From IMG/VR virus record IMGVR_UViG_3300045999_010308, positions 1 to 64,000 of that record: a stretch of DNA of 64,000 nucleotides, one strand, 5' to 3'. Position 1 is the stretch's first letter, and each line of letters starts with the position of its first letter. This document shows, one piece after another, positions 340-46,962 of this stretch. A model generated the notes under the pieces. That model was not told the origin of the DNA, did not search any database, and worked only from the letters and a program-made list of their open reading frames with translations. This DNA comes from a virus. The position numbers and the translations under genes were made by a program.

Positions 340-1131
340 ATGCTAATAATTGATGCTAGTCCGACGCAAAGATGGACTCCGGCTTTTTCAAATTCTGCGA
401 TTTGGATTAAAGCTAATAATAGTAGTAGTTTAACTTTAAGTGGCTTAAACGTGACTGCTGTGCAAGATTTAGTTAATAATTTAAACTTTTCTGTCACGGG
501 GCCAATTACAGTTAATACTACAGAATTAGGAGGGGAGCGATCAGTTTTAAGTATTAATAATACTAGCTCTGCTCAATTTCTTTCTGCTATTTTTAATTAT
601 GCGGGAAATGCAATTACTTTGGCATCTGTTCATAGGAATAATTCTGCGTTAGCAGGAAAAGTTAGATTCGGAAGATTATGGTCGTTGTCGCCATCGACAC
701 AACAAGATTTCGATAACACTGGTGGAATAATTTTAACTTATGGAATTAACTCTAACAATGGTGTATATTTGTTCAGAAATAATGCTGTAGCTGCTCAAAC
801 ATCCCCTTTAATTAATAATCAATGGGCATCTGTTATCGCTACCAGAAACAGTTCCCAATCGAGAATAATTTTAAATGGTGGAACTGCATCATCTGGAACC
901 ACTTCTTTAGCTAATCTTGATTGTAATAGAATTAGGATTGGGAACGATATAACCGCAGTCGATTCAGGGATGAACGGCTTTATCGCTGAAAATATTTTAT
1001 GGACTAGAGAGCTATCTACCAATGAGATTAATTTATTAGCTGGTTATTTTCATTGGGAATGGGGGTTACAGTCTCTTCTACCAACGAATCACCCTTTTAA
1101 AAATCGTCCACCTCTTGTGTCTGATATTTAA
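340..1131 (+). CDS. LamG / concanavalin A-like phage structural protein
   Basis: 263 aa, rich in N, S, T and beta-strand-forming residues. The C-terminal 50 residues contain GMNGFIAENILWTRELSTNEINLLAGYFHWEWGL, the typical end of phage LamG/concanavalin-like jelly-roll domains (an 'i-E-l-w-R-L---E----gYLa-kWG' pattern). The mid-region has alternating strands and an IWIKANNSSSLTLSG opening. By family such domains bind glycans or decorate fibres; host-surface binding is inferred. It lies on the plus strand, opposite most of the genome, next to related fragments, so this is a small convergent receptor or decoration module ending against nrdB. Confidence 0.6.
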   Translation: MLIIDASPTQRWTPAFSNSAIWIKANNSSSLTLSGLNVTAVQDLVNNLNFSVTGPITVNTTELGGERSVLSINNTSSAQFLSAIFNYAGNAITLASVHRNNSALAGKVRFGRLWSLSPSTQQDFDNTGGIILTYGINSNNGVYLFRNNAVAAQTSPLINNQWASVIATRNSSQSRIILNGGTASSGTTSLANLDCNRIRIGNDITAVDSGMNGFIAENILWTRELSTNEINLLAGYFHWEWGLQSLLPTNHPFKNRPPLVSDI

Positions 1132-1168
1132 GGTAAAATAAAATCAGAAAATATTTGGAGAATTTAAA

Positions 1169-1354
1169 TTGAATTACAGAAAATACTTAGCTGGAATTAG
1201 TATTCCACCAGCAGAATTGATCACATGGCAAGACAAGAGTGGCAATAATAACCACCTTTTAGCACAACCGAAAAAAAGGTGGCATCAACGGCTTTCTGTC
1301 TTATCGAGCGATGCTATTAAATATCATCCCATCCCGTTAAGCCAGAAGACATAA
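1169..1354 (+). pseudogene. Fragment of a second LamG-like gene, running into the nrdB 3' end
   Basis: A 61-codon frame with a TTG start and an AAATATTTGGAG ribosome site upstream. It has ELITWQDKSGNNNHLLAQ, the hallmark 'W-D-SGN-N' opening of LamG-like fibre proteins, but then loses similarity and overlaps the last 38 bp of nrdB on the other strand. It is probably a truncated remnant of a gene like its neighbour, cut when nrdB became juxtaposed. A genuinely short expressed protein cannot be excluded. Confidence 0.4.
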
Positions 1355-2384
1355 CATAACTGGTAACAGTTGCTTCAAAAAAGTTTGACTTAGTGTGACC
1401 TTCCCCTTGAGTATCAGAGAATTTCTCTAAATGGGAATAGGGAGATTTTTTGTATTTGTCCTCGGTAAAAATTGGATTTAAGCCGATGGCTTTTAGTCGA
1501 ATATTGGCAAGGTATTTAGTATAGTGATCTATACTTTCTTCAGTAATGCCCAGTATTTGATTACCGATAATATGGTTAGACCAATTAATTTCTTGATTGA
1601 CAGCCTCTAAAAATGAACTTGCTATACCTTCTTTAATTGACTCTTTCGGGAATAATTGCAATGCTTCCACAATTAATTTTTGATACAATCGGACGTGACT
1701 TAATTCGTCTCGGTTGATCATCCTAAAAATATCGGCACTTCCAGCCATTAGCTGTCTAGAAGCTAAATTATAAAAATACTGGAACCCATTATAGAAATAC
1801 AGTCCTTCTAGAATATAATTAGCAACAAGAGAACCAAAATAATTACCCTGTGTTGGGCTGTCAATATATTTTTGATAAGAACTAGCAATAAATTCACAGC
1901 GATTTCTAAGAATTTTATCGGTGCGCCATAAATCATAAATTTCAGCCCTTTTGTTTGAGGGAATAATAGTCTCAATCAAGTATTGATAACTTTGATTGTG
2001 CATAGCCTCTTGAGAGATTTGTTCTGCCATACAAAGGCTGATCTCTGGGGCTGTGACGCAAGATTTTAAGTGAGGAATGTTACAGGTTTGTACAGAATCA
2101 AGAAAAGTTAGATAGGATAAAATACCATCATAAGCGCGTCTTTCATCAAGGGTTAAGTTATTATAGTCAGTTATATCTTGAGTAATATCTATTTTTTGCG
2201 GAATCCAGAAATTTTCACGCATCTGTTGATATAAACCTACAGCCCAAGCGTAGCGGACATCATTTAATTGCATTAGGTTGGTAGTGTTACCAAACCAGAT
2301 AGATCGAGTTTCAGTCGCATCATCCCCCGATGGATTGAAGATCGGGGAAATGGGCATTTTATTGTCAAGATTTGCTGATGTCAT
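1317..2384 (-). CDS. nrdB: Class I ribonucleotide reductase beta (radical) subunit
   Basis: 355 aa, normal length for NrdB. The di-iron ligands are visible in order: D in TFLDSVQT, the ExxH of QEAMHNQSY, E in NYILEGLYF, and ELSH in NRDELSHVRLY. The Tyr of NQSYQY lies where the radical tyrosine belongs (E. coli Y122), so this should be a tyrosyl-radical enzyme. With NrdA encoded upstream at 3019-5271 it would reduce ribonucleotides to deoxyribonucleotides for phage DNA synthesis in the cytoplasm. Two small genes separate it from nrdA in one leftward operon. The 3' end overlaps a plus-strand LamG fragment. Confidence 0.95.
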   Translation of the reverse strand: MTSANLDNKMPISPIFNPSGDDATETRSIWFGNTTNLMQLNDVRYAWAVGLYQQMRENFWIPQKIDITQDITDYNNLTLDERRAYDGILSYLTFLDSVQTCNIPHLKSCVTAPEISLCMAEQISQEAMHNQSYQYLIETIIPSNKRAEIYDLWRTDKILRNRCEFIASSYQKYIDSPTQGNYFGSLVANYILEGLYFYNGFQYFYNLASRQLMAGSADIFRMINRDELSHVRLYQKLIVEALQLFPKESIKEGIASSFLEAVNQEINWSNHIIGNQILGITEESIDHYTKYLANIRLKAIGLNPIFTEDKYKKSPYSHLEKFSDTQGEGHTKSNFFEATVTSYVMSSGLTGWDDI

Positions 2385-2401
2385 AGTTTTGATTGAGTAA
2401 A

Positions 2402-2674
2402 TTATCTGAAGATTGATTTAAAAGCTTCTAGGTCAAGATGTATGTCGTATTTTTTCCAGTGAATATAGCTGCCGTCTTCTGGAATAGTAAATCTTGATTG
2501 GTCGGATATTTCGATTCTTTTTAGTGCTGACAGAGAACTAAACGGAATCTGAAATAAATTTAAATTGCAATCAAAAACGATTAAGCTATCTTTAAAAACA
2601 ATAGCTGTACTAATCATCTTATTAGATGAACGCCATTTGTGAGCGATTATGATTCTTTTAATTATTGAAATCAT
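2402..2674 (-). CDS. Hypothetical protein between nrdA and nrdB
   Basis: 90 aa, no recognised family. It begins with a basic segment (IIKRIIIAHKWRSSNK) followed by short beta-strand-like stretches (FKDSLIVFDCNLNLFQIPFSSLSALKRIEIS), like a small PH-like or beta-barrel fold. The start overlaps the stop of the upstream 96-aa gene by 4 bp (ATGA), so the two are probably translationally coupled in the nrd operon. Confidence 0.55.
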   Translation of the reverse strand: MISIIKRIIIAHKWRSSNKMISTAIVFKDSLIVFDCNLNLFQIPFSSLSALKRIEISDQSRFTIPEDGSYIHWKKYDIHLDLEAFKSIFR

Positions 2675-2961
2675 GGTTTATCTGAAGGTTCCCAGTCTCT
2701 ACATTGTACACAAGAAATAGAGGGATTTACACTACATTTCAGATTAAAATCTTTATGGGTTTCAGGATTATAATATTTACAAGAACTAATCCGATTATAT
2801 TCAGCTGTTGAATAGTATTTGAGTTGTTTAACTGTGTAGATTAAATTGGTCTTAAATCTAAAAAACACTCTACACACGACAACAGCAAAAATTAAAGCAG
2901 TATAAAGTAAAAATATACTTAATACAATAGTTGCTAGAAAGTTAATAATTATTATTGCCAT
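2671..2961 (-). CDS. Membrane-anchored cysteine-rich protein, DUF6464-like tail
   Basis: 96 aa with a long N-terminal hydrophobic segment (residues 1-32, one or two transmembrane passes). The C-terminal domain has the cysteine pattern CKYYN...LKCSVNPSISCVQCRDWEP, close to a 'C--Y---L-CAV-P---C--C-D-EP' pattern I associate with small cyanobacterial DUF6464-type proteins. The cysteines may bind a metal. The function is unknown, and its place in the nrd operon does not explain it. Confidence 0.5.
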   Translation of the reverse strand: MAIIIINFLATIVLSIFLLYTALIFAVVVCRVFFRFKTNLIYTVKQLKYYSTAEYNRISSCKYYNPETHKDFNLKCSVNPSISCVQCRDWEPSDKP

Positions 2962-3018
2962 AATGATTATTTATTTTTTCGAGTATTGATAAAATAACAG
3001 AAAAAATGATATTCATGG

Positions 3019-5271
3019 TTAATTAGCACAACTAGAACAGCTATCTTTAAAGTTATCCTTCTGAACAGTCCGTACATAATAGACTGCTTTACATTCTGAT
3101 TCCCACGCTAAAACTAGAGTTTCGTAAATTTCTTTAACTGTTAATACGCGGTTAGGTTCGTCAGGAAAATAAACACCCTGATTAAGGTTAAATAGTAATT
3201 CCATAGAAATCCCTGTATCAATCCATTTTTGCATTTCAGCAATCGCTTGAACAACAATCTTTTGATCAAGATTTTGATTCTCTTGATAATACCAAAAAGA
3301 ATCTTTGATAAAAGGAGGACAATTAGGAATAGCACCTTTTGAGTTTTTTTCTGTGAATACCCGCTTAAAGACGGGCAAAACACTAGCAGTACAACCCTGA
3401 ATTAAAGATGAAGTAGTATTGGGAGCTATAGCAGTAATATGAGAGTTTCTAATCCCGTAGCGTTGCACATCATTAATTAATTTATGCCAATTATAGGTAT
3501 CATCAGAATTTACTTTGAACCATTCTAATGGTTTAGCCCCTAGTAATTTACCCTGACTCCATTCACTGCCAGAAAAAGCTTGATAAGCACCGCGTTCTTT
3601 AGCTAATTCCATCGAAGCGTGAGTACAAAAATAGCTAATTCTTTCAAATAAATCACTGATAGATTTAAAGTCTTTATAAGATAATTTTTGTTTAGCCAAC
3701 CAATCGGCTAATCCCATGACTCCAACTCCAATCGTTCGATATTTATCATTATGTTCTTTAGCCTCGCCAATTGGGGGACAAGTGAGGTCGATAGTATTGT
3801 CAAGCATCCTGACAGCAAGATGACACATTTCTGATAAATCAGCAAGAGTGTCAATGTTAGCAAGATTAAGACTAACTAAATTACAGCAATGGGCCGTTTT
3901 ACCCGGTGTGACATTAGAAAAGCTTTCACAGCACAAATTAACTTGAGGGATGTACCCATCGTGTTTATTAGGATTAGCCCGATTAATGGTATCTTTGAAG
4001 GCAAGATAAGGCATACCTGTCTCGATTTGAGAGCGCATAATATCTTTAAATAATTCCCTAGCATTAACCTTCTTGTAGAGAGTAATTTTTGTTCCTAGAC
4101 TATCTTCAATTAATTCATAAGCCTCTTCAAATTTGTCCCCCCATAGTTCCGCTAATTCTATCCCTAGTTGTGTGCAAACTTCATAAGGATCAACTAATGT
4201 CCACTCGGCTTTATTTATTACCCGACGCATAAATTCATCGGTGATAACTAATTGGGGAAAAATATCATAAGCTTTGCGTCTTTGATCACCGGTTTCTGTT
4301 TGCATTTCCAAAAATTCTGGCACATCTAAATGCCAGATATCAACACCGATAGTTACTGCCCCGGCGCGTCTTCCCCCCTGATTTACTGCAATAGCTGTGT
4401 CGTTGAGTAATTTAATCCAGGGTATAATCCCCCCGGAAGCGTTAGCTTTTCCCATAACCGAGCTACCAGTGGCACGGATTCTACTCACATTCACCCCGAC
4501 ACCGCCACCATTCTTAGAGATGCGAGCAGTATTAGTAATCTCGCTAAAAATACTCTCTAGATTGTCTTCCATTGCTACGATGAAGCAACTACTTAAAGAA
4601 CCATTAGGGGTTCTTAGATTGCCTAAAATTGGAGTAGCTAGAGAGATTTTTCTTTGGGCTATGGCTAGGTAGATTTGACGAGCAAAACTTAATCTATCTT
4701 CTGGTTCCTTTTCTACACTGGCAAGTAATAAAGCGCAAGTCAAAAAAGCCTCTTGAGGTAATTCACAATCAAGTAAATACCTTTTTGACAACATGATTGC
4801 ACCAGCATAGTCAAAGTCTTTATCGTATTCTGGGTATATCCACTCCCCCGCAATTTCTAAGTCTTTTTCGTCATAGATTTCCGTAATTTTTGAATCATAA
4901 ACACCTCTATCCACTTGCCACTGGGCATATTTAGCGTAGTCAGTTCCTTCTAATCTCCTGAAAACCGTGCGAGATAAATACCCGCCAAATTCTCTTTTAA
5001 TTCTAGTATCCTTCCACAGTCCCCAGACGTGAAGTCTTCCAGCTACATACTTCCAATCGGTTTCTTCTACACAAAACAATCGTGTGGCAACATTGATTAA
5101 ATTTTCTTGAATTTCTTGCGTGGTAATACTATCTCGTAATCGAGAGGTTAACCCTGATTCTAAAGCGAGGGGATTTACTTCTAACCCTTCACACGCCCAT
5201 TCCACTACTCGTCGAATTTTAGTGATGTCTAAGGGACGAGTTTCTCCACTTCTTTGAATTACGTTAATCAT
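3019..5271 (-). CDS. nrdA: Class I ribonucleotide reductase alpha (catalytic) subunit
   Basis: 750 aa. An ATP-cone regulatory domain occupies about residues 1-90 (VIQRSGETRPLDITKIRRVVEWAC). Catalytic features are all present: SSCFIVAM with the first redox cysteine, NLCCE with the N-x-C-x-E radical site, CNLVSLNL with the second redox cysteine, and YYVRT with the paired tyrosines of the radical path. The C-terminus ends DSCSSCAN, a CxxC thioredoxin/glutaredoxin-reducible tail. It acts with NrdB encoded downstream. Length and motifs are normal, so it should be active and allosterically regulated. Confidence 0.96.
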   Translation of the reverse strand: MINVIQRSGETRPLDITKIRRVVEWACEGLEVNPLALESGLTSRLRDSITTQEIQENLINVATRLFCVEETDWKYVAGRLHVWGLWKDTRIKREFGGYLSRTVFRRLEGTDYAKYAQWQVDRGVYDSKITEIYDEKDLEIAGEWIYPEYDKDFDYAGAIMLSKRYLLDCELPQEAFLTCALLLASVEKEPEDRLSFARQIYLAIAQRKISLATPILGNLRTPNGSLSSCFIVAMEDNLESIFSEITNTARISKNGGGVGVNVSRIRATGSSVMGKANASGGIIPWIKLLNDTAIAVNQGGRRAGAVTIGVDIWHLDVPEFLEMQTETGDQRRKAYDIFPQLVITDEFMRRVINKAEWTLVDPYEVCTQLGIELAELWGDKFEEAYELIEDSLGTKITLYKKVNARELFKDIMRSQIETGMPYLAFKDTINRANPNKHDGYIPQVNLCCESFSNVTPGKTAHCCNLVSLNLANIDTLADLSEMCHLAVRMLDNTIDLTCPPIGEAKEHNDKYRTIGVGVMGLADWLAKQKLSYKDFKSISDLFERISYFCTHASMELAKERGAYQAFSGSEWSQGKLLGAKPLEWFKVNSDDTYNWHKLINDVQRYGIRNSHITAIAPNTTSSLIQGCTASVLPVFKRVFTEKNSKGAIPNCPPFIKDSFWYYQENQNLDQKIVVQAIAEMQKWIDTGISMELLFNLNQGVYFPDEPNRVLTVKEIYETLVLAWESECKAVYYVRTVQKDNFKDSCSSCAN

Positions 5272-29878: not shown

Positions 29879-32746
29879 TCAGGTGCTTATATCCTGTAAA
29901 TAGCAATCAGAAAACGGAATTGTAAAAATGATCACAGACCCATTTAGAACAGTTTCTACCCTCAAAAGCCATTGATCGTCAAAAGTTACTTCTATAATTT
30001 TTCCGACCGCTCTCGGAGGGATAGTTCGCTCTCCTATCTGAATAGGTGCAGCCGTCCGCACTAATACCCTTTCTTTTTCAAGATCAGGTAAGTTATCGAT
30101 GTGTACACCATCAGCCGATAGCTCATCGACTGGTTCTGGTTCAATTTTTACTGTCTCAGGTTCTGATTTTGGCGTAGGAGTGGGAACCTGAATAACTTCC
30201 TCTTTTATCTCTGATTGATATTCCAGAGAATCTTCTATCTCAAAAGTTTCTACTACTTTTGGCTCTTGATAGTGCAACACCATACCCCTTGACTTAATTT
30301 CTAATCGTCCATAGCCAGCTTGCTCTAACTGAGTAAGTAGGGTACGGGCGATAGATGTATTTACTTTTTCCCCATTAATTTTACGCCCGCCGAATTTTTG
30401 GGCAACGTCCCGAGGTTTAATTTGACCTGCGCTTTTAACGATCTCCCAGATTTCGGATAAAATACCCTGTACTGGATTTTCGTCCTGAGACGTGACTCCC
30501 TGAATTGTCAAGAATTGACTGATATAGAAGTCGGTCATCTTAGCAGCTTTAATGGCTGTTTGTACAGGAATACTGTAAAGATTGGTATTATCTGGATCAA
30601 ATATCCAATTGAGAAGATGAATACTTAATGTAAGCCTTAAAAAGGTCTTCATTTGTTTTCCTAAGTAGGAAGCAAATGATGGATTAATCGCTCGATACTT
30701 CTTAATAAGTATCTCGTAATGGTACTTAATACCAAAGGCATAACTTTCTCCAATTTCGCTAAACCAGCAATTATGAGGATCGACAATCCCATCCTCATCG
30801 GCTTCTAGGCTAATTCCACTGATTTGATTGATAATATTTTCGATACACTCATCGATAGAATTAGGGTCTTCTGGCGGCTTACCAGGGCGAGGATCAAGAG
30901 GTTCGTGTAGCAAGAAAAGATACCGAGAAACCGCTCCGTCAACATCATTAGATAAATCAAGATATTTCCTAAGTTTGTCGACTTGTATCCCACCTAATTT
31001 ATTAAGTGTCTGTCCATCTAAATAGTATCGATTATCTTTGTTTACACGGTCAAAAGTATTTCGGATTGGTCCATTCCAATTGCTTAAATCTCGTTGCCGG
31101 TCATTCCCTTTACCACCTGATCGGTACTGATTTAATCCCTCGAAAAATCCCGATAGCTCATCATAGACGACTACCCCACCTTGCCAAGAAGGTTGTGAGG
31201 ACATCGTTTTTAAAATGCCATCAAGAGTCCCCTCGTCGTAAAACCACCGACGCGCCTGACAGTGTTCTTTTTCGTAAAGACGTGGGTTGATTTCAGCGTT
31301 TGTTTTGTTTGCCTTGCGATCTGATGCTGACATTTCTTGCCACGCAGCTTTTAGATCGTCTAGTGTGGATTGTTCCTTAGTAACTCTTTTCTGCTCGGCT
31401 AAATCTTTTCTTTTCAAAACCCGACAAACTTCGTTTTGAGTGAGAGTTTTTCCAGTAGAAACCCCGCCTAAGTCTGCACAATAGAAGATCGGGTATTCCT
31501 TCCAGCATTCCCTTTCTCTTGCAGTAGTTCGGAGGTTAATCGCAAACCGACTTCCTAAAATAGCTCCTAGTATTGGCCATAAAGAATGCAGTAATCTGAT
31601 TGGGGGTTGATTCAAAGTTTTGGCACGGGATATAATCGCTTCGGCTAAAGGTTTGGGAAGTATCTCAAAAAGATCAATCTCTTTTTTCTGGTAATGCTTA
31701 CCTTTCAGGAACCCTTCTAATCCTGATTTAATAGCGTCCCCTTCTGCTATTTCTGTTTTACGGATTTCAATTAAATGTCGTATTTCTGCTGGTTTTTTAC
31801 CAGTGGCTTTTGCCCACAGATCGACTTTTTCTTGCCATTGAGTTCGGGTAATTTCGTCTTGACCAATACAGCCGTCAATAGCTGTTATTAGGTCTTGAAA
31901 AGTCATCGTTTCTGTTACCGTGACTTCTTTTTCTTTGCTCTCTTTTATTTCTTTTGGCTTATCAACTATTGAAGTTAATAATGTATCGAGAGTTACCTTC
32001 TTTTCTTCAATCCAATTGATAATATCTACCCCTTGAGATTCTGGCAAGTGATCCCATAAAGGAGAATCTGGATAGGCATAAAGCCATTTTGCATCGGGGA
32101 AATCTTGATAAATTTTCTGGCAGTGAGACACTCCCCCTTTGTCACGATCAGGACATAAAACCAGATTTGCTCCCTTTAAAGCTTCTGTGTGAAGCGGCTG
32201 CCATTTCTTTGATCCGCCTATATTACAAGTGGCAACTAATCCCAGAGATTCAAGCTTTTCTACTTTAGCCTCACCCTCAACTACAAATACCCGGGTTCCT
32301 TCCTTAATAGCCTTTTCCAGCCGATCTTGACGGTAAAGAGGTATATCTTTGTACTCAATATCACCTAGTCCCCATTTCCAATTTTTACCATTATCTGTAG
32401 AATGCTGCTGCTTGATATCCTTTTTCCAGATACCATTCTCTTGATAGTCCTTCCGGTACACACGGATTTTCAAGCCACTGGCAAGAGGGGGATAAAGGGA
32501 GTATTGAGTTTTTTCTGTTTTGTAGTCGGAAAATTTGACTTCTTTCTTGAGATAGTAGAGCGGTGTACCCTCACTATCTACGTTGCTCGATTTTTCCCAT
32601 CCTGGTGCAGGGTCGTAGTTTCGCTTGCATACCGAGAGTAGATTGCCGTCCTGGGCTGTGTACATATAGCACCAATCAGGCTTGCCACAGTGGGGACAAG
32701 GATTGTTTTTATCGATCTTGACACGGTTAGAGTTTTGTGTTACCAT
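29879..32746 (-). CDS. Primase-helicase: Zn finger, TOPRIM-like and DUF3987 domains
   Basis: 955 aa. A zinc finger opens the protein (CPHCGKPDWCYMYTAQDGNLLSVCKR, residues 17-42). A TOPRIM-like region at about 150-260 includes VFVVEGEAKVEKL and LVLCPDRDKGG. The DUF3987 core spans about 340-720 with Walker A-like DLGGVSTGKTLTQNEV and GGVVVYDELSGFFEGL as the Walker B region. A winged-helix segment (IKPRDVAQKFGGRKINGEKVNTSIARTLLTQLEQAGYG) and an SH3-like C-terminus follow. It should prime and unwind DNA for phage replication. Confidence 0.82.
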   Translation of the reverse strand: MVTQNSNRVKIDKNNPCPHCGKPDWCYMYTAQDGNLLSVCKRNYDPAPGWEKSSNVDSEGTPLYYLKKEVKFSDYKTEKTQYSLYPPLASGLKIRVYRKDYQENGIWKKDIKQQHSTDNGKNWKWGLGDIEYKDIPLYRQDRLEKAIKEGTRVFVVEGEAKVEKLESLGLVATCNIGGSKKWQPLHTEALKGANLVLCPDRDKGGVSHCQKIYQDFPDAKWLYAYPDSPLWDHLPESQGVDIINWIEEKKVTLDTLLTSIVDKPKEIKESKEKEVTVTETMTFQDLITAIDGCIGQDEITRTQWQEKVDLWAKATGKKPAEIRHLIEIRKTEIAEGDAIKSGLEGFLKGKHYQKKEIDLFEILPKPLAEAIISRAKTLNQPPIRLLHSLWPILGAILGSRFAINLRTTARERECWKEYPIFYCADLGGVSTGKTLTQNEVCRVLKRKDLAEQKRVTKEQSTLDDLKAAWQEMSASDRKANKTNAEINPRLYEKEHCQARRWFYDEGTLDGILKTMSSQPSWQGGVVVYDELSGFFEGLNQYRSGGKGNDRQRDLSNWNGPIRNTFDRVNKDNRYYLDGQTLNKLGGIQVDKLRKYLDLSNDVDGAVSRYLFLLHEPLDPRPGKPPEDPNSIDECIENIINQISGISLEADEDGIVDPHNCWFSEIGESYAFGIKYHYEILIKKYRAINPSFASYLGKQMKTFLRLTLSIHLLNWIFDPDNTNLYSIPVQTAIKAAKMTDFYISQFLTIQGVTSQDENPVQGILSEIWEIVKSAGQIKPRDVAQKFGGRKINGEKVNTSIARTLLTQLEQAGYGRLEIKSRGMVLHYQEPKVVETFEIEDSLEYQSEIKEEVIQVPTPTPKSEPETVKIEPEPVDELSADGVHIDNLPDLEKERVLVRTAAPIQIGERTIPPRAVGKIIEVTFDDQWLLRVETVLNGSVIIFTIPFSDCYLQDIST

Positions 32747-32778
32747 AGTTTCTATATGAAAAGTGTTTGTTTACACGA

Positions 32779-41203: not shown

Positions 41204-42264
41204 CCTGCAATCTACTTAACAAGTCAAGCCGATTGTTACAAAAACCAGTAAATGCGATGGTGAAGGTAGCTTTTTCCTTGCAATCTACTTAACAAGTCAA
41301 GCCGATTGTTACCCTTAGTGGCGAAGGTTTCCCCTGAGATGAAGCGTCACTTGCAATCTACTTAACAAGTCAAGCCGATTGTTACGAAAAGCGAGGGGAA
41401 ACCGCGGCCACAATCTTAAGAGACTTGCAATCTACTTAACAAGTCAAGCCGATTGTTACTGTGGGGAGGGTTCCCCAGATTGTCGGTATAGTACCCTTGC
41501 AATCTACTTAACAAGTCAAGCCGATTGTTACGGAAAAGGAAAGATTCACTTGACAGATTCCAAGAGAAACTTGCAATCTACTTAACAAGTCAAGCCGATT
41601 GTTACCCCGATCGACCGCGAGTCTCTCTCGACAAAGGGGCTTGCAATCTACTTAACAAGTCAAGCCGATTGTTACCTGATTTTGATAACGTTGATTGGCA
41701 CTGGATAGGTCTTCTTGCAATCTACTTAACAAGTCAAGCCGATTGTTACTAGATGAAATTTTGGCCGCAATTGCTATAAGTAACCCACTTGCAATCTACT
41801 TAACAAGTCAAGCCGATTGTTACTTCGCGGTTTATCAGGCTTAAAACACCCCCATTGTGCTTGCAATCTACTTGACAAGTCAAGCCGATTGTTACTAACT
41901 GATTAAGATCATCGGAGTAGTACACTTCTGTCCTACTTGCAATCTACTTAACAAGTCAAGCCGATTGTTACCAATTGCCTCGATAATTTGATCCTTAGTT
42001 GCCCCTTCATCCTTGCAATCTACTTAACAAGTCAAGCCGATTGTTACCAGTTACCGGCTAGAGTGCCGGGAGTGTGGACGGTTCCAAACTTGCAATCTAC
42101 TTAACAAGTCAAGCCGATTGTTACAGGTTCATTTTGGCAAAATAAGCCAAAATGACGCGCTTGCAATCTACTTAACAAGTCAAGCCGATTGTTACTGGGA
42201 ATACAATTTTGATCGCTCAAGTGCCGGTCTTGCAATCTACTTAACAAGTCAAGCCGATTGTTAC
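41204..42264 (-). CRISPR. CRISPR array 1: 15 repeats of 36 bp, 14 spacers
   Basis: Repeats start at 41204, 41277, 41350, 41424, 41496, 41570, 41640, 41714, 41788, 41860, 41936, 42012, 42089, 42160 and 42229; spacers are 33-41 bp. On the minus strand the repeat begins GTAACAATCGGC and ends GATTGCAAG. The copies are identical except one base in the 41204 copy (its minus-strand 3' end) and one in the 41860 copy. The imperfect 41204 copy marks the trailer, so the leader is at 42264. There the stop codon of the nuclease gene lies inside the repeat. Spacers show no repeated sequence; no self-match was noticed by eye. Confidence 0.98.
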
Positions 42265-43946
42265 CCAGTCTCCCAGAGTGTAAGCTGCGTATAGTCTGCG
42301 TTGACTGTTTGCGCGGGTTGCGAGTGGATCGACCTTTTCCTTGTTTTTTTCTTAGGTGTCACTGGCTCGGAGGTCAAAACCAGTAAGGTTTCGAGGGTTT
42401 CTTCCCCAAGTAACAATCGGCTGGACTTGTCAAGTAATTCCTCCTGCGCTGATTCCTTATCGAAATCCTTCAGAGGCTTAACTTCCCCGGTGCAAGCCGG
42501 GTAGCTTCTTACGAAGTCTGCTTTCCCTAAGATGTTGATTGCGGCGGCCACATCTCTGGGTAAAGTACATCCACACTCTAAACATTTATGGGTGCGGGTT
42601 GATAAACTTTTTTTAACACGATTGCCACAGCGAGGACAATCCTGACTGGTGTAAGCTGGTTGAACTTTGATAAACTCTCGGTTGGGAGTTTTCATTTTCG
42701 TTTCAAGAAAACCAGTTAATTGTCCTAAACTAGCATCAGCAAAGGATTTATTTAATCCCCCTTTGGCTTTCGCGTTATTGCGTTCGTAGCCTTTACCGTC
42801 TTCTCTTTTTTTCGGTTTAGGTCGTCGCATTAAATTCTTTAAGTTGAGGTCTTCTACGGCTACAGCGCCATGATTTCTAGCAATATCGGTACTTAAGGCA
42901 TGATTAAATCCTTTGCGTTGTCTTGCTATTTTTTCGTGAGTTTTGGCAACTTTAGCACGAGTTTTAGCGAGATTTTTGCCGTCTTTATTTTCCCCTGCTT
43001 TATACTGTCTAGCGGTTTTTCTTTGCAGTTTTGCTAGTCTTTTTTGCTGTTTTCTATAGTATTTGGGCGGGTCAATTTGTTGGCCGTCGCTGGTACTAAT
43101 TATATATTCTAGTCCTACGTCAATACCGATTGCTTTATCGGAATCAGGTAGATCATCTACTTCAAATTCACCAAATAGACTTAGATAATATCCCGATGGG
43201 TATTTGATAATTGATACGGTAGAGGCTTTTCTGTCACCCCACCGAATATCTAAGGTATTGTTGATAATTTTTAAATCGCCTAATGTTTTGCCACAGCTAC
43301 CTATAGATATTTTATCCCCTTTTCTAACAGCGCAATCGCTGATCTCAGAATAAAGAGATTTAATTTTATCTTCTTTTCTTTTAAATCTAGGAAGTTTTCT
43401 GTCTAAATTCTTTTTATCGAGTTTGGTGTAAGCTTTCCAAGAATCAGCAAGCTTTTTTAAAACCCCTTTGACAAAAGCCATAGGGATGTCCTTGCATAGC
43501 TCTGGACATTTTTCTTTTGTAATACAGCCACATAACCCAAAATAATTATCAGATTTTAACCGCCGTTGAATAGGGATATGGACAGGATAAGAGTGACCTG
43601 CTTTTTGTCTTTTTTCTCTAGCTATCTGTATTTTAACTTTTTGCTTGCCAGTTAAATATTTGGGGGTGTAAAGGGGATTAGGAAGGGATTTACCTTTTTC
43701 GTTTTTCAGGGAGTCAATAAATTGAGGTTTTTTAGCTAAACGACGTTTAACCCGTTTAACTGGTTTTCCTGTTATTTTCTCAATCTCGTCGTAATACTTA
43801 TTAAGCTGATATTCCATCAGTAGCTCTAGCCCAAAATTCCAGACAGCTTTAAGCTCGTCCATCCAGCGATCAATATAGGCTCGCTGAGTAGCATTAAGGT
43901 TAAGCTTTATGTCCGCAATAGTTTTCTTGACTAGCATGGCTCTCAT
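42261..43946 (-). CDS. Compact TnpB/Cas12-like (type V-U-like) RNA-guided nuclease, unit 1
   Basis: 561 aa. RuvC-I AIGIDVGLEYI (D276), RuvC-II VAVEDLNLKNL (E365) and RuvC-III LPRDVAAAINI (D465) are intact. The zinc finger CPRCG...CLEC uses C437, C440, C455 and C458. The bridge-like basic helix RLAKLQRKTARQ and HEKIARQRKG are TnpB hallmarks. Residues 476-561 are an extension beyond the usual TnpB end and end QLTLWETG. This extension encodes the anti-repeat. No cas1/cas2, tnpA or Tn7 genes are nearby. The gene abuts array 1. The RNA-guided DNA nuclease role is from family. Ribosome site AAAGGAAGG. Confidence 0.88.
   Translation of the reverse strand: MRAMLVKKTIADIKLNLNATQRAYIDRWMDELKAVWNFGLELLMEYQLNKYYDEIEKITGKPVKRVKRRLAKKPQFIDSLKNEKGKSLPNPLYTPKYLTGKQKVKIQIAREKRQKAGHSYPVHIPIQRRLKSDNYFGLCGCITKEKCPELCKDIPMAFVKGVLKKLADSWKAYTKLDKKNLDRKLPRFKRKEDKIKSLYSEISDCAVRKGDKISIGSCGKTLGDLKIINNTLDIRWGDRKASTVSIIKYPSGYYLSLFGEFEVDDLPDSDKAIGIDVGLEYIISTSDGQQIDPPKYYRKQQKRLAKLQRKTARQYKAGENKDGKNLAKTRAKVAKTHEKIARQRKGFNHALSTDIARNHGAVAVEDLNLKNLMRRPKPKKREDGKGYERNNAKAKGGLNKSFADASLGQLTGFLETKMKTPNREFIKVQPAYTSQDCPRCGNRVKKSLSTRTHKCLECGCTLPRDVAAAINILGKADFVRSYPACTGEVKPLKDFDKESAQEELLDKSSRLLLGEETLETLLVLTSEPVTPKKKTRKRSIHSQPAQTVNADYTQLTLWETG
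42410..42440 (-). ncRNA. Anti-repeat to array 1, inside the 3' coding end of nuclease 1
   Basis: On the plus strand this segment reads GTAACAATCGGCT, G, GACTTGT, C, AAGTA, ATT, which is the minus-strand repeat with two substitutions and one deletion in about 28 nt. The nuclease mRNA is therefore complementary to the crRNA repeat. It encodes about residues 502-512 (ELLDKSSRLLL). It lies about 145 nt before the first repeat, so it could act in cis as an omega-RNA-like fold or give a tracrRNA. Confidence 0.75.
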
Positions 43947-44067
43947 GGATCGACCTTCCTTTATTCTTATTTAAATCTACCACAACCCTACTAGAAATGT
44001 CAAGTAAAAAGTCTAAAGATTTTTTGGGATACCAGTTCCCACATCAGAACCTGTAGCCCAACCCTTA
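43937..44067. repeat. 131-bp perfect direct repeat, copy 1
   Basis: Identical to 46832-46962, offset 2895 bp. Contains the first bases of the nuclease gene (ATGAGAGCCA), its ribosome site and promoter, and the last 53 bp of a 122-aa gene (GWATGSDVGTGIPKNL). Copy 1 is the displaced remnant, since only copy 2 continues into the full 122-aa gene. Confidence 0.97.
43975..44003 (-). promoter_or_regulatory. Promoter of nuclease unit 1
   Basis: TTGACA (43998-44003), 17 bp, GTAGAT (43975-43980; TAGATT at 18 bp also possible). Leader of about 22 nt to the ATG at 43944-43946. Identical in unit 2 (46870-46898) and nearly so before the 122-aa gene (47322-47350). Confidence 0.6.
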
Positions 44068-44146
44068 GTTAGGCTAACCATGTTCCCAAGAGAAATCCTA
44101 GTAATAAAGTTGGTATTCCAATAAGATAAATTTCGTGATTTATTAT

Positions 44147-44434
44147 TTATTCTTTATAATTATTAATAGTTTCCCAGAAATAAATCTCTGCTAGTAATTT
44201 ATTTCTTTTAAGTATTAGTTTTTGCCAAAAACGAAAACTTTCAAAAAAGTTATCCCATCCACGAGGGACATCAACAAAAATACTATCTAAAATGATAAGT
44301 AGATACCTCTCGACAAAATTGCGTATTGTTAAGATTAAAGAACGTGGTTTTATTTCCATTTCTTTTAGTTCCGCTTTGGTTAATTTTTTCCTTAAAAATT
44401 GACTAATCTTTTTATCTAGTTGTGTTTGATTCAT
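44147..44434 (-). CDS. Hypothetical basic helical protein between the two CRISPR units
   Basis: 95 aa (MNQTQLDKKISQFLRKKLTKAELKEMEIKPRSLILTIRNFVERYLLIILDSIFVDVPRGWDNFFESFRFW). It lies between array 2 and the 131-bp repeat, within the 2.9-kb segment that was added. No family recognised. It could be cargo or an accessory factor such as an anti-defence or regulatory protein. Confidence 0.45.
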   Translation of the reverse strand: MNQTQLDKKISQFLRKKLTKAELKEMEIKPRSLILTIRNFVERYLLIILDSIFVDVPRGWDNFFESFRFWQKLILKRNKLLAEIYFWETINNYKE

Positions 44435-44458
44435 TGTTTTTTTCGGGTTTAATATTTA

Positions 44459-44854
44459 GTTTAATCTTAATAAGGCTTAAGCTTAATTGTTTCACTCAAA
44501 ATCACCCATAGGATGATATTAAGATGGTACGTTTCAATCCCTAATAAGGATTAAGGTTAATTGCTTTAACATATTAATTTGCAAACAATAGCTTCAGATG
44601 AAGTTTCAATCTCTAATAAGGCTTAAGGTTAATTGCTTCATCGCCTAGACTTGAAATAATTCTCAATGATTACATCGTTTCAATCCCTAATAAAGCTTAA
44701 GCTTAATTGCTTCTGTTAAAGGGGAAAAATTGTCATCATACCGTGAGTTTCAACCCCTAATAAGGATTAAGCTTAATTGCTTCGCTAATTGCGACCGGGT
44801 TAATTGGGACTACATTGGTTTCAACCCCTAATAAGGCTTAAGCTTAATTGCTTC
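44459..44854 (-). CRISPR. CRISPR array 2: 6 repeats of 35-37 bp, 5 spacers
   Basis: Repeats at 44459-44493 (degenerate), 44531-44567, 44603-44639, 44677-44713, 44747-44783 and 44818-44854; spacers are 33-37 bp. On the minus strand the repeat starts GAAGCAATTAAG and ends GGGGTTGAAAC, the ending of many cyanobacterial repeats. The copies differ at several positions. The most degraded copy is distal to the nuclease gene, so the leader is on the gene side and transcription is leftward. The repeat is unrelated to array 1. Confidence 0.95.
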
Positions 44855-44951
44855 CCATCTTCTTTTAGCCCTTGATGTAAAAGGGTTTCGGGTAAGGATT
44901 GCGCCCCATTCGCTAAAATTTAGTTTTCAAGGTTCTGCTCATTCCAAAAAA
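44855..44951 (-). other. Leader / guide-scaffold region of array 2
   Basis: 97 bp between the nuclease 2 stop and array 2. On the minus strand GGGGCGCAATCC occurs here (about 44897-44908) and again inside the gene 3' end (about 44995-45006), where it forms a GGGG/CCCC hairpin. This suggests a structured RNA spanning the gene end and the leader. Confidence 0.5.
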
Positions 44952-46841
44952 TCAGGCTAGTAAATCCCAGATCGTAAGTTGGTCGGGGTTTTCGGGGATT
45001 GCGCCCCGTGATTTTTTAGAACTTCGCTTAGATGCCTTATTGGGTAAGGCTTTCGGGTTATTTATGCCGTGGCTATCCTCGCACGGCTGAGGTGGGGCGG
45101 AAAGAAAAATAAGGGATTGCGAGTCATTCTCGGACTGAGTAGGTATGCGATTCCCTTCCTGCTTCATCTGCTTACTGATCGAGTGTTCGGCATTCTCTAT
45201 CGGCGCGTCCCCGATAGACTCTTGATTTGCATCAAGATCAGGCGTGAATTCCCTCGCTAAACCGAGGTATTTTCCAATCAAAGAGACAGGAAACTTGATT
45301 AAAGAGCCAATCGCTCTTAAAAACTCATCTCGTAAGCCACGAATCAGAATATTTGCGGCGGCATTCTGATCGGCGTGGGCTTCGTAACCACAGCTAGTGC
45401 ATTTAAACTTTGATTGACTAACGCGGTTAGCTTTATTAATATTACCACAATTGAAGCAAGTTTGTGAAGTATGTTTAGGATTAACTCGGATCACTTTTCT
45501 GCCACGTTCTTTGGCTTTATTCTCGATGAACGTGCGAAGTTGACCGATAGCATTATCAAGCAATACTTTATTTAATCCAGACTTTCTTTTTTTGCCATTC
45601 TGTTTATAGCCATTGCCGTCTTCCTTTTCTTTAGGTTTTGCGGCGGCTGTCATGTTTTTTAGTTTTAAATCTTCTAAAATAACTGATTGATATTCGCTGG
45701 TTATTTTATGGGCTAATTGGGCATTTCTCCCTTTTCTTTGACGGGCTATTTTCTCATGAACACGGGCAAGTTTAGCGTAAGTTTTACGCTGATTATTAGA
45801 GTTATCTTTTTGTCTAGAAGCTTGACGTTGCAATCGGTTAAGTCGCTTTTTCTGAATTTTTGCGTAGCGTTTAGCTTCTGATTGTCTCCCTAAGTCATCG
45901 GTAAATATTGCTACAGCACCCATATCTAACCCGACACACTTATCAGATTCTTTGTAGATCGTGTCGTCAGTTTCGATTTCGATAGTTAGCTGTAAATAAT
46001 ATCCCGTCGCTTTACGAGTAATTTTAGCCATTCGGGGAGCTTTCCCTTGCAATCGATCAAGTCCCCGTACTTTCAGTAATCCTATCTTTGAAGAAACAAT
46101 AACTCCATTAGATTTAATCTTTATAGTTTCAGGTTGACCGTTAACAAGAGTCTCTACCTTATCCCGTCTTCCTTTAAACTTAGGAACCCCACGAATACCT
46201 TTTTTAGCGGCATCGTAAGCGGGTTCAATCACACTTTTAAAAAAGCCTTTTTTAAACTCTGTTTCAATTTCACCGATAAATTTTGCTGTATCTTCTCGGA
46301 AATAAAAAGCAAGTTTCTGTCTATTAAGATAGTTAACAGCATCCTTATCAATATTTTCAGCATTCATAAAACGACGGATAGGAATAGCATCTAAGGGAGT
46401 GTACTCTTTTCCGTTACTTGTCTTTTTAAAATAGGCGATTTTACAGCAAGGATTACCGATTAAAAGTTCTTTCTCTTCATCTTTAAGGGTTTCAAACTCT
46501 TTTTCGTCGTAATGCCCAAAATAACTTAACTCCCATATTTCAGGGCTAAACTCATCAAATTTATGTTTTGTGCGATAATATCTTTGTTTTGATTCTTCCT
46601 TAAGTGCGATCGAAAGATTCCAGAGTAACTTACACGCCACTAAAGAACGATCAATCTCTGTGATTTGTTCTTTAGTAGGATGTATTTTAAATTCTAAGAC
46701 TTTCCTAGGAGGCTTTTCTTCCTTTGTCTTAGGAGTCTTTTTGACAATACTAAACCTTATATGCCCGTCTTTAGAACTAGGCGTTTTTTGAATTTGATAC
46801 TCATCTACTTTACGCTTAACTTTACTTTTTTTGGCTCTCAT
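44952..46841 (-). CDS. Compact TnpB/Cas12-like (type V-U-like) RNA-guided nuclease, unit 2
   Basis: 629 aa. RuvC-I KCVGLDMGAVAIF (D306), RuvC-II VILEDLKLKNM (E390) and RuvC-III AHADQNAAANIL (D491) are intact. The zinc finger uses C462, C465, C481 and C484. RLNRLQRQASRQ and VHEKIARQRKG match nuclease 1, but the N-terminal recognition region differs. The C-terminal extension (about 500-629) ends DQLTIWDLLA, echoing QLTLWETG of nuclease 1. It lies 97 bp from array 2. Its first 10 bases and upstream 121 bp equal those of unit 1. Function as an RNA-guided nuclease is by family. Confidence 0.87.
   Translation of the reverse strand: MRAKKSKVKRKVDEYQIQKTPSSKDGHIRFSIVKKTPKTKEEKPPRKVLEFKIHPTKEQITEIDRSLVACKLLWNLSIALKEESKQRYYRTKHKFDEFSPEIWELSYFGHYDEKEFETLKDEEKELLIGNPCCKIAYFKKTSNGKEYTPLDAIPIRRFMNAENIDKDAVNYLNRQKLAFYFREDTAKFIGEIETEFKKGFFKSVIEPAYDAAKKGIRGVPKFKGRRDKVETLVNGQPETIKIKSNGVIVSSKIGLLKVRGLDRLQGKAPRMAKITRKATGYYLQLTIEIETDDTIYKESDKCVGLDMGAVAIFTDDLGRQSEAKRYAKIQKKRLNRLQRQASRQKDNSNNQRKTYAKLARVHEKIARQRKGRNAQLAHKITSEYQSVILEDLKLKNMTAAAKPKEKEDGNGYKQNGKKRKSGLNKVLLDNAIGQLRTFIENKAKERGRKVIRVNPKHTSQTCFNCGNINKANRVSQSKFKCTSCGYEAHADQNAAANILIRGLRDEFLRAIGSLIKFPVSLIGKYLGLAREFTPDLDANQESIGDAPIENAEHSISKQMKQEGNRIPTQSENDSQSLIFLSAPPQPCEDSHGINNPKALPNKASKRSSKKSRGAIPENPDQLTIWDLLA
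45022..45045 (-). ncRNA. Weaker anti-repeat to array 2, inside the 3' coding end of nuclease 2
   Basis: The mRNA sense strand reads ACCC, AATAAGGC, ATC, TAAGC. It can pair with the array 2 crRNA repeat through GCCTTATT (8 bp), GGGG (3-4 bp with a one-base bulge) and GCTTA (5 bp). It encodes about residues 599-607 (LPNKASKR). The position mirrors the anti-repeat of unit 1: about 70-95 nt before the stop and about 170 nt before the array. Confidence 0.45.
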
Positions 46842-46962
46842 GGATCGACCTTCCTTTATTCTTATTTAAATCTACCACAACCCTACTAGAAATGTCAAGT
46901 AAAAAGTCTAAAGATTTTTTGGGATACCAGTTCCCACATCAGAACCTGTAGCCCAACCCTTA
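46832..46962. repeat. 131-bp perfect direct repeat, copy 2
   Basis: Identical to 43937-44067. Here it joins the 3' end of the intact 122-aa gene to the start of nuclease 2, probably the original arrangement. Includes the shared promoter (46870-46898) and ribosome site. Confidence 0.97.

What the first reader, a model, noticed from the sequence alone, without database searches (positions are those of the whole stretch)
41204..46962. Two different compact Cas12/TnpB-like nucleases, each with its own CRISPR array, in one phage locus
Seen: two RuvC nucleases (561 and 629 aa) with intact D/E/D and zinc-finger residues, each directly upstream of an array with an unrelated repeat (15 and 6 units), both transcribed leftward with the leader on the gene side. 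No cas1, cas2, cas4, tnpA or Tn7 genes lie nearby. Known: type V-U effectors in cyanobacteria are TnpB-like and lack adaptation genes; compact phage-borne type V systems exist (Cas12j). Inference: a phage-borne minimal pair, perhaps against rival mobile elements or host genes. A double, tandem arrangement with distinct repeats seems unusual.
Basis: partly seen in the sequence, partly recalled or inferred. Interest (0 to 1): 0.92.

Follow-up and report, generated by a model that had tools for sequence, protein, structure and literature searches.

The report
Paired mini-CRISPRs in a Microcystis phage
A virus of bloom-forming Microcystis cyanobacteria carries two tiny CRISPR systems whose stored targets point mainly at small plasmids of its host, and one of them seems to hide part of its guide RNA inside its own nuclease gene.

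Summary
Confirmed: two intact c2c8-type (V-U2) effectors, E1 (42261-43946) and E2 (44952-46841), each upstream of its own array (15 and 6 repeats) in an 82.8 kb virus record. Of 53 related contigs, 32 hold array 1 only, 16 array 2 only, one holds both (near-identical to the window), four show none (fragments). The tandem is a merger of two alternative cassettes at one site. Findings: (1) E1's first repeat overlaps its stop codon, and a 30-nt anti-repeat (likely tracrRNA) lies inside E1's coding end; phages CL131 and L157 have an equivalent with two compensatory changes. None was found for E2. (2) 76 of 176 spacers match four 7-9 kb Microcystis plasmid-type replicons (up to 8 mismatches); 56 of 126 spacers not used to choose them also do; controls 0. 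(3) Protospacers carry 5'-TT (array 1) or 5'-GTY (array 2). (4) Array 2 resembles the host type I-D array in repeat, PAM and spacer length. Five of 176 spacers hit sibling phages, one of them in the E1 gene. Best reading: RNA-guided nucleases against host plasmids and, less, rival phages. Phage V-U2 systems are already in print; targets, PAMs and the gene-embedded anti-repeat I did not find reported. Activity untested.

The parts
42261..43946 (-). E1: c2c8-type (V-U2) RuvC effector, 561 aa, with C-terminal tail after the zinc finger
   Evidence: NCBIfam NF038192 369.7 bits, cut-off 350; PADLOC Cas12u2 419.6 bits; RuvC and zinc-finger residues; c2c8 clade
42410..42439 (-). anti-repeat inside the E1 coding tail, complementary to repeat R1; candidate tracrRNA core, 145 nt before the first repeat
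   Evidence: pairing score 48.5; 200 shuffles mean 18.3, max 26.0; 0 of 387 control windows reach it; also seen as inverted repeat
41204..42264 (-). array 1: 15 repeats R1 (36 nt), 14 spacers; first repeat overlaps the E1 stop codon by 4 nt
   Evidence: R1 with up to 3 mismatches in 0 of 388 cyanobacterial genomes
44952..46841 (-). E2: c2c8-type (V-U2) RuvC effector, 629 aa
   Evidence: NCBIfam NF038192 463 bits; PADLOC Cas12u2 551.7 bits
44457..44854 (-). array 2: 6 repeats R2 (37 nt), 5 spacers; distal repeat degenerate; R2 variants 29-31 of 37 identical to the Microcystis type I-D repeat
44855..44951 (-). 97-nt stretch between the E2 stop and array 2 (leader); holds GAACCTTGAAAA, also in the host I-D leader
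   Evidence: similarity weak on its own (score 24, 200 shuffles max 25)
43937..44067 (-). 131-bp upstream sequence of E1, identical to that of E2; likely seam of the cassette merger
46832..46962 (-). 131-bp upstream sequence of E2, identical to that of E1
42432..42467 (+). protospacer inside E1, 35 of 36 matching an array-2 spacer of sibling phage L052/G011, with GTC in front
44147..44434 (-). 95-aa ORF of unknown function between array 2 and E1; relative in Microcystis myophages MaMV
   Evidence: no Pfam or PHROGs match

Best explanation
Two TnpB-derived, single-protein CRISPR systems (V-U2/c2c8) that a Microcystis phage brings into the cell as portable RNA-guided DNA nucleases. E1 is guided by two RNAs: crRNAs from array 1 and a tracrRNA read from the 3' end of its own gene and pairing with the repeat (inferred from a strong anti-repeat). 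E2 is guided by array 2; its second RNA, if any, is unknown. E1 recognises DNA next to 5'-TT, E2 next to 5'-GTY (inferred from protospacer flanks). The guides mainly aim at small CyRepA1/DUF3987-type plasmids of the host and, less often, at sibling phages, including the rival E1 gene; the likely gain is freeing the cell of competing or protective replicons. Spacer turnover is real, but the phages show no Cas1; array 2 is probably fed by the host type I-D Cas4-Cas1-Cas2, array 1 by recombination between phages or an unknown source. Shown: genes, arrays, anti-repeat, targets, PAM bias, cassette exchange. Inferred: transcription, processing, cleavage, benefit.
For: Effector class. Anti-repeat: E1 0 of 387 control windows, CL131 0 of 274, L157 0 of 277; two pairs change on both sides and stay paired between CL131 and L157. 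Array fused to the gene end: overlap 4 nt in E1; L154, L155, L156, L161, L166 by 14-30 nt, L164 27, L165 11; L157-L160 begin 5 nt after. Targets: 76 of 176 spacers against four replicons of 31.4 kb, 0 of 176 against 46.4 kb and 12.9 kb of other Microcystis DNA; 56 of 126 spacers not used for the choice, reversed spacers 0; five shuffled sets 0. PAM: array 1 (39 spacers) T 72% at -2 and 59% at -1; array 2 (40) G 70%, T 85%, C/T 85% at -3, -2, -1. Contrast: one host I-D array has 11 of 195 spacers on the plasmids and 30 of 195 on 11 phage records; phage arrays 76 and 5 of 176. Array-2 growth at the gene side: shared spacers at 0.70, unshared at 0.29 of array length.
Against: No RNA or activity data. 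No anti-repeat for E2 (37 of 385 control windows reach its score), nor for L154, L164, L165, G371, G099. Most matches carry 3-8 mismatches: only 7 of 176 at up to 2, so the exact target replicons are not in hand; of the window's own 19 spacers, 4 of 14 and 1 of 5 have no more than 10 mismatches to a replicon. 57% of spacers stay unassigned. The PAM counts include two array-2 'hits' that are really spacers of a host array (L205). Small multicopy plasmids are also what unselected acquisition would sample. Two chromosomal stretches also match (9 and 2 hits). Array-1 sharing shows no polarity (0.47 against 0.51). Arrays without any effector exist (L119, L122).
Confidence: 0.68

Rival explanations
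1. Array 2 is a decoy or hitchhiker of the host type I-D system: its RNAs are processed by host Cas6d and loaded on host Cascade, or sponge it, and E2 is a passenger or a separate nuclease.
For: R2 is 29-31 of 37 identical to the I-D repeat; GTY lies within the M. aeruginosa I-D PAM GTH (PMC7648086, PMC10212523, passages read); spacers mostly 34-35 nt in both; arrays persist without an effector in L119 and L122; the leader motif is shared.
Against: E2 is intact and adjacent in most E2 loci; repeats are similar, not identical, unlike the mini-arrays described in PMC11656645 (passages read); array 1, with an unrelated repeat, targets the same replicons.
Confidence: 0.3
2. The target plasmids are phage satellites or defensive plasmids, and the two systems are the phage's answer to them, as in ICP1 against PLE.
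For: 7-9 kb size, tyrosine recombinase, a replication-type gene shared with the phage (NIES-2549 p1 DUF3987 gene and window about 32003-32764, tblastx; annotation), a shared leader-like element, and heavy, diverse targeting by both arrays.
Against: No structural or packaging gene seen in the ORFs listed; the 1005-aa protein of L201 found no relative in IMG/VR, so packaging is not supported; the shared element may be a common Microcystis repeat (recalled).
Confidence: 0.2
3. Ordinary IS200/IS605 or IS607 TnpBs with accidental repeats.
For: TnpB domains are present and the generic guided_TnpB model matches.
Against: c2c8 cut-off passed, IS200 (171.1, 139.1 against 425) and IS607 (87.6, 81.2 against 350) cut-offs not; separate clade; TnpA in 0 of 10 records; spacers match replicons next to a PAM.
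Confidence: 0.03
4. The systems repress rather than cut, as roadblocks on plasmid genes.
For: Type V-M does so (PMC11656645, passages); the CL131 authors suggested a regulatory role for V-U2 (PMC6293099, passages).
Against: All RuvC acidic residues are intact in both.
Confidence: 0.15

Closest known systems
Type V-U2 locus of cyanophage vB_AphaS-CL131 (PMC6293099, passages read)
   Same: c2c8 effector, single array, phage-borne, no adaptation genes reported there
   Different: Here two effectors in tandem, plasmid targets assigned, PAMs, and an anti-repeat; the paper says tracrRNA was absent, but I find an anti-repeat in CL131 too
Virus-encoded type V-U systems in huge phages and landfill viruses (PMC7162821, PMC12607003, passages read)
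   Same: Compact type V effectors without acquisition genes, sometimes 2-3 per virus
   Different: Those passages name phage or bacterial targets; here mainly small plasmids
LaTranC transposon-CRISPR intermediates (PDB 9jfo, 9jfp, 9jfq; the split-RNA idea is recalled, paper not held)
   Same: TnpB-like nuclease with a guide split into tracr and crRNA (for E1)
   Different: E1 is nearer to Cas12p and ISDra2 TnpB chains by sequence; the anti-repeat lies inside the coding sequence
ICP1 phage CRISPR-Cas against PLE satellites (search listing and abstracts only)
   Same: A phage carries CRISPR against another mobile element of its host
   Different: Type V-U2, no Cas1; targets are plasmids not shown to be satellites
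Plasmid type IV-A using host I-E adaptation (PMC11656645, passages read)
   Same: Effector and array without own acquisition genes; host machinery suspected (array 2)
   Different: Phage-borne, class 2, host type I-D

Membership tests
Type V-U2 (c2c8) | Effector scores above the curated c2c8 cut-off | tested here: met
   369.7 and 463 bits against 350
Type V-U2 (c2c8) | Intact RuvC D/E/D and zinc finger | tested here: met
Type V-U2 (c2c8) | Groups with c2c8 rather than with TnpB of insertion sequences | tested here: met
   13-row clade 98/98, 11 Microcystis TnpBs outside; several long branches, E2 among them
Type V-U2 (c2c8) | CRISPR array next to the effector | tested here: met
Type V-U2 (c2c8) | No adaptation module | tested here: met
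   Cas1 in 0 of 10 records; Cas2 and Cas4 not searched as families
Type V-U2 (c2c8) | RNA-guided interference | not testable with these tools
   no experiment
Transposon-CRISPR intermediate (TranC-like, split guide RNA) | tracrRNA pairing with the repeat | tested here: met
   E1 only: 0 of 387 control windows; E2 not met (37 of 385)
Transposon-CRISPR intermediate (TranC-like, split guide RNA) | Closest relationship to LaTranC | tested here: not met
   E1 to LaTranC E 6.1e-7, behind Cas12p and TnpB chains; E2 E 2.1e-4
IS200/IS605 or IS607 TnpB | Passes the curated cut-off and belongs to an element with TnpA | tested here: not met
   scores far under cut-off; Y1 TnpA in 0 of 10 records; IS607 serine recombinase not searched
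Viral mini-array using host effector | Repeats identical to the host's and spacers mostly against related viruses | tested here: not met
   R2 29-31 of 37 to the I-D repeat of one host genome; 3 of 90 array-2 spacers hit the 11 phage records
Anti-satellite phage CRISPR (ICP1-like) | Spacers target a satellite of the same phage | tested here: inconclusive
   targets are small plasmids sharing a replication-type gene with the phage; no viral contig found for one rep-type protein

The most novel reading that the evidence does not exclude
An arms race of the ICP1-PLE kind run with TnpB-derived nucleases: the small CyRepA1/DUF3987 plasmids are satellites or guardians that harm this phage, and two alternative V-U2 cassettes, exchanged and stacked at one phage locus, police them; array 2 borrows host type I-D acquisition, and E1 reads its tracrRNA out of its own gene's tail, a living step between TnpB with omega RNA and true type V CRISPR.
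Probability: 0.2. Interest if true: 0.92.

Novelty: new variant of a known kind. Interest (0 to 1): 0.72.

Why it matters
It gives a phage V-U2 system a concrete target class (small host plasmids), two predicted PAMs and, for E1, a predicted second guide RNA inside the coding sequence: three ready tests for effectors whose function was left open in the CL131 paper. The layout (first repeat overlapping the stop codon, anti-repeat in the tail) is what one expects if arrays grew from the 3' end of a TnpB guide RNA. It also ties together phage, plasmid and host type I-D immunity in a bloom-forming cyanobacterium.

Tried and rejected
Rejected: ordinary TnpB with chance repeats. Rejected: targets mainly among sequenced phages; 95 of 180 unique spacers had no match in 50,697 phage records, and two recurrent spacers searched in IMG/VR hit only arrays of the same phage group. 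Not supported: an anti-repeat for E2 and five other loci. Weak: leader motif, shared 50-nt element. The landmark 105 of 180 used a loose criterion and stretches chosen by matches; shuffled sets gave 2-6 and reversed 5 there, so I rely. No structure prediction was run. One search was a wasted literature search (one broad term). Rows dropped: spacers under 30 nt (4 of 180); L040 and L001/L002 as duplicates of other records.

Full report
Observation. The two effectors and two arrays are as described. E1 and E2 both pass the NCBIfam c2c8 cut-off and best match Cas12u2 in PADLOC. The acidic RuvC triad and four cysteines are invariant in an alignment with CL131 gp061 and two cyanobacterial c2c8 proteins. 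In a 28-row tree, 13 c2c8 proteins form one clade (98/98) without the 11 Microcystis TnpBs; E1 groups with L165, L164 and L162 (96/88 for the group), E2 with CL131, L157, L154 and L163 (86/96); several branches, E2's among them, are long. So E1 and E2 seem to come from different c2c8 branches.

The phage. The record is a virus of 82,822 bases with tail and tape-measure genes and tRNA-Met and tRNA-Tyr next to the locus. The host is Microcystis by two lines: an E2 relative lies on a Microcystis sp. LSC13-02 contig, and 30 of 195 spacers of one Microcystis type I-D array match the 11 phage records held, 20 of them within 4 mismatches. No close relative was found among 50,697 phage records for the locus; only a small ORF and a repeat-like stretch match MaMV phages.

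Cassettes. Searches of IMG/VR gave 37 loci with E1 and 17 with E2, from 53 contigs: 32 show array 1 only, 16 array 2 only, one both, four none in the stretch held. Many are fragments, so absence of the other cassette is not proved for each; among 13 longer records only G007, near-identical to the window, has both effectors intact. E1-only and E2-only phages align to the window on the same outer flanks, and the window has the same 131 bp upstream of both genes. The simplest reading is recombination between two alternative cassettes through the common upstream sequence.

Guide RNA. Array 1 begins inside the E1 stop codon. Within E1, 145 nt before the first repeat, 30 nt pair with R1 (score 48.5; 200 shuffles max 26.0; 0 of 387 control windows). 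Other phage c2c8 loci repeat the layout: the first repeat overlaps the gene end in L154, L155, L156, L161, L166, L164 and L165 and starts 5 nt after it in L157-L160; L162 (249 nt) does not. An anti-repeat lies 133 nt before the first repeat in L157 and 147 nt in CL131, 0 of 277 and 0 of 274 control windows. L157 and CL131 are close relatives; of 21 duplex positions two changed on both sides and stayed paired, while CL131 pairs at 18 and L157 at 17. The CL131 gene stops earlier than L157's, but the region with the anti-repeat is kept. E2, L154, L164, L165, G371 and G099 gave no significant anti-repeat. Thus the tracr claim is strong for E1, supported for L157/CL131, and open for E2.

Targets. 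56 arrays gave 325 spacers, 180 unique. 50 of them, searched in 12 Microcystis genomes, matched small contigs (6 of 12 genomes). The four small replicons are L201 (8,846 b), L202 (8,000 of 9,160 b), L203 (7,606 b) and L204 (6,987 b), the last identical to plasmid p1 of NIES-2549. L203 resembles NIES-2549 p1 and part of a NIES-2481 plasmid annotated with a CyRepA1 replication protein; L201 has a tyrosine recombinase. Against these four, 76 of 176 spacers of 30 nt or more match over their whole length with at most 8 mismatches (46 at most 6, 23 at most 4, 7 at most 2); 46.4 kb and 12.9 kb of other Microcystis DNA gave 0. To remove the selection effect: of the 126 spacers not used, 56 match and 0 of their reversals do. 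Array 1 contributes 39 of 86, array 2 37 of 90; one host I-D array only 11 of 195. A further set of stretches (G018:C50 and two chromosomal places, chosen by matches) gave 17 of 176.

PAM. Best hits over eight stretches show 5'-TT for array 1 (n = 39) and 5'-GTY for array 2 (n = 40), with no bias on the other side. Two of the array-2 rows come from L205, which is a host CRISPR array and not a protospacer. The host array holds near-copies (2 mismatches) of the window's third array-2 spacer, so host and phage aim at the same replicon.

Sibling phages. 2 of 86 array-1 and 3 of 90 array-2 spacers match the 11 phage records. One, from E2-phage L052/G011, matches the E1 gene of rivals at 35 of 36 with GTC in front, beside the anti-repeat; another, from L024, matches four siblings perfectly and, in the stretch held, not its own record outside its array.

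Acquisition. Array-2 pairs share distal spacers and differ at the gene side; array 1 shows no such polarity. The phages lack Cas1 (0 of 10). R2 is 29-31 of 37 identical to a Microcystis array whose neighbours are Cas1, Cas2d, Cas4d, Cas6d, Cas3d, Cas7d and Cas10d; the published M. aeruginosa I-D PAM is GTH (PMC7648086, PMC10212523, passages), and spacers of array 2 and of the host array are mostly 34-35 nt. Use of host acquisition for array 2 is therefore likely but not shown. R1 is in 0 of 388 cyanobacterial genomes at up to 3 mismatches.

Function. Most likely the phage carries sequence-specific nucleases that remove or disable small plasmids and, at times, rival phages during infection. Whether the plasmids are satellites is open: they share a replication-type gene with the phage, but no packaging evidence was found and one rep-type protein had no IMG/VR relative.

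Novelty. V-U2 in a phage (PMC6293099) and several type V effectors in one virus (PMC12607003) are in print. I found no report of plasmid targets, PAMs or a gene-embedded tracr for phage V-U2 in ten searches of the open library; subscription papers and the TranC paper are not held.

Noticed in passing
L119:3326-3490 and L122:4377-4905: R2 arrays standing without an effector gene in two phage contigs of the same group; natural orphan arrays.
   Followed up: partly
L048-L050 (G010:C1:73061-74926): E2 copies with an in-frame TGA, next to 4-repeat arrays.
   Followed up: no
L029 / G008:C1:24548-25602: An E1 copy that looks broken (several stops in the best frames of the E2-based search).
   Followed up: no
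L127:3483-14501 (G098:C73): A prophage-like region with two similar c2c8-type genes in a duplicated module (Rha/antirepressor-like gene beside each), no CRISPR array found, and a separate 394-aa TnpB.
   Followed up: partly
L130 (G014:C171), 1079-3588: Microcystis sp. LSC13-02 contig where another TnpB lies between the two parts of a c2c8 gene that is followed by R2 repeats.
   Followed up: no
L131:5392-5648 (CL131): CL131 gp061 ends earlier than its close relative L157, but the tail region with the anti-repeat is kept.
   Followed up: partly
window:31900-32760: Phage gene region with about 53-61% amino-acid identity in pieces to the DUF3987 protein of Microcystis plasmid NIES-2549 p1.
   Followed up: partly
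L205:730-8000 and L210 (G021:C45): Microcystis type I-D array with 196 repeats; 30 of 195 spacers match this phage group, 11 the small plasmids.
   Followed up: yes
L207 (G023:C1:3362001-3376000): Chromosomal stretch with 9 spacer matches; perhaps an integrated relative of the plasmids.
   Followed up: no
L057:6001-6275 (MaMV-CH01): Relative of the 95-aa ORF beside array 2 with a single R2-like repeat in Microcystis myophages.
   Followed up: no
window:49497-59252: Very long tape-measure protein (3251 aa) with transglycosylase- and metallo-endopeptidase-like parts.
   Followed up: no
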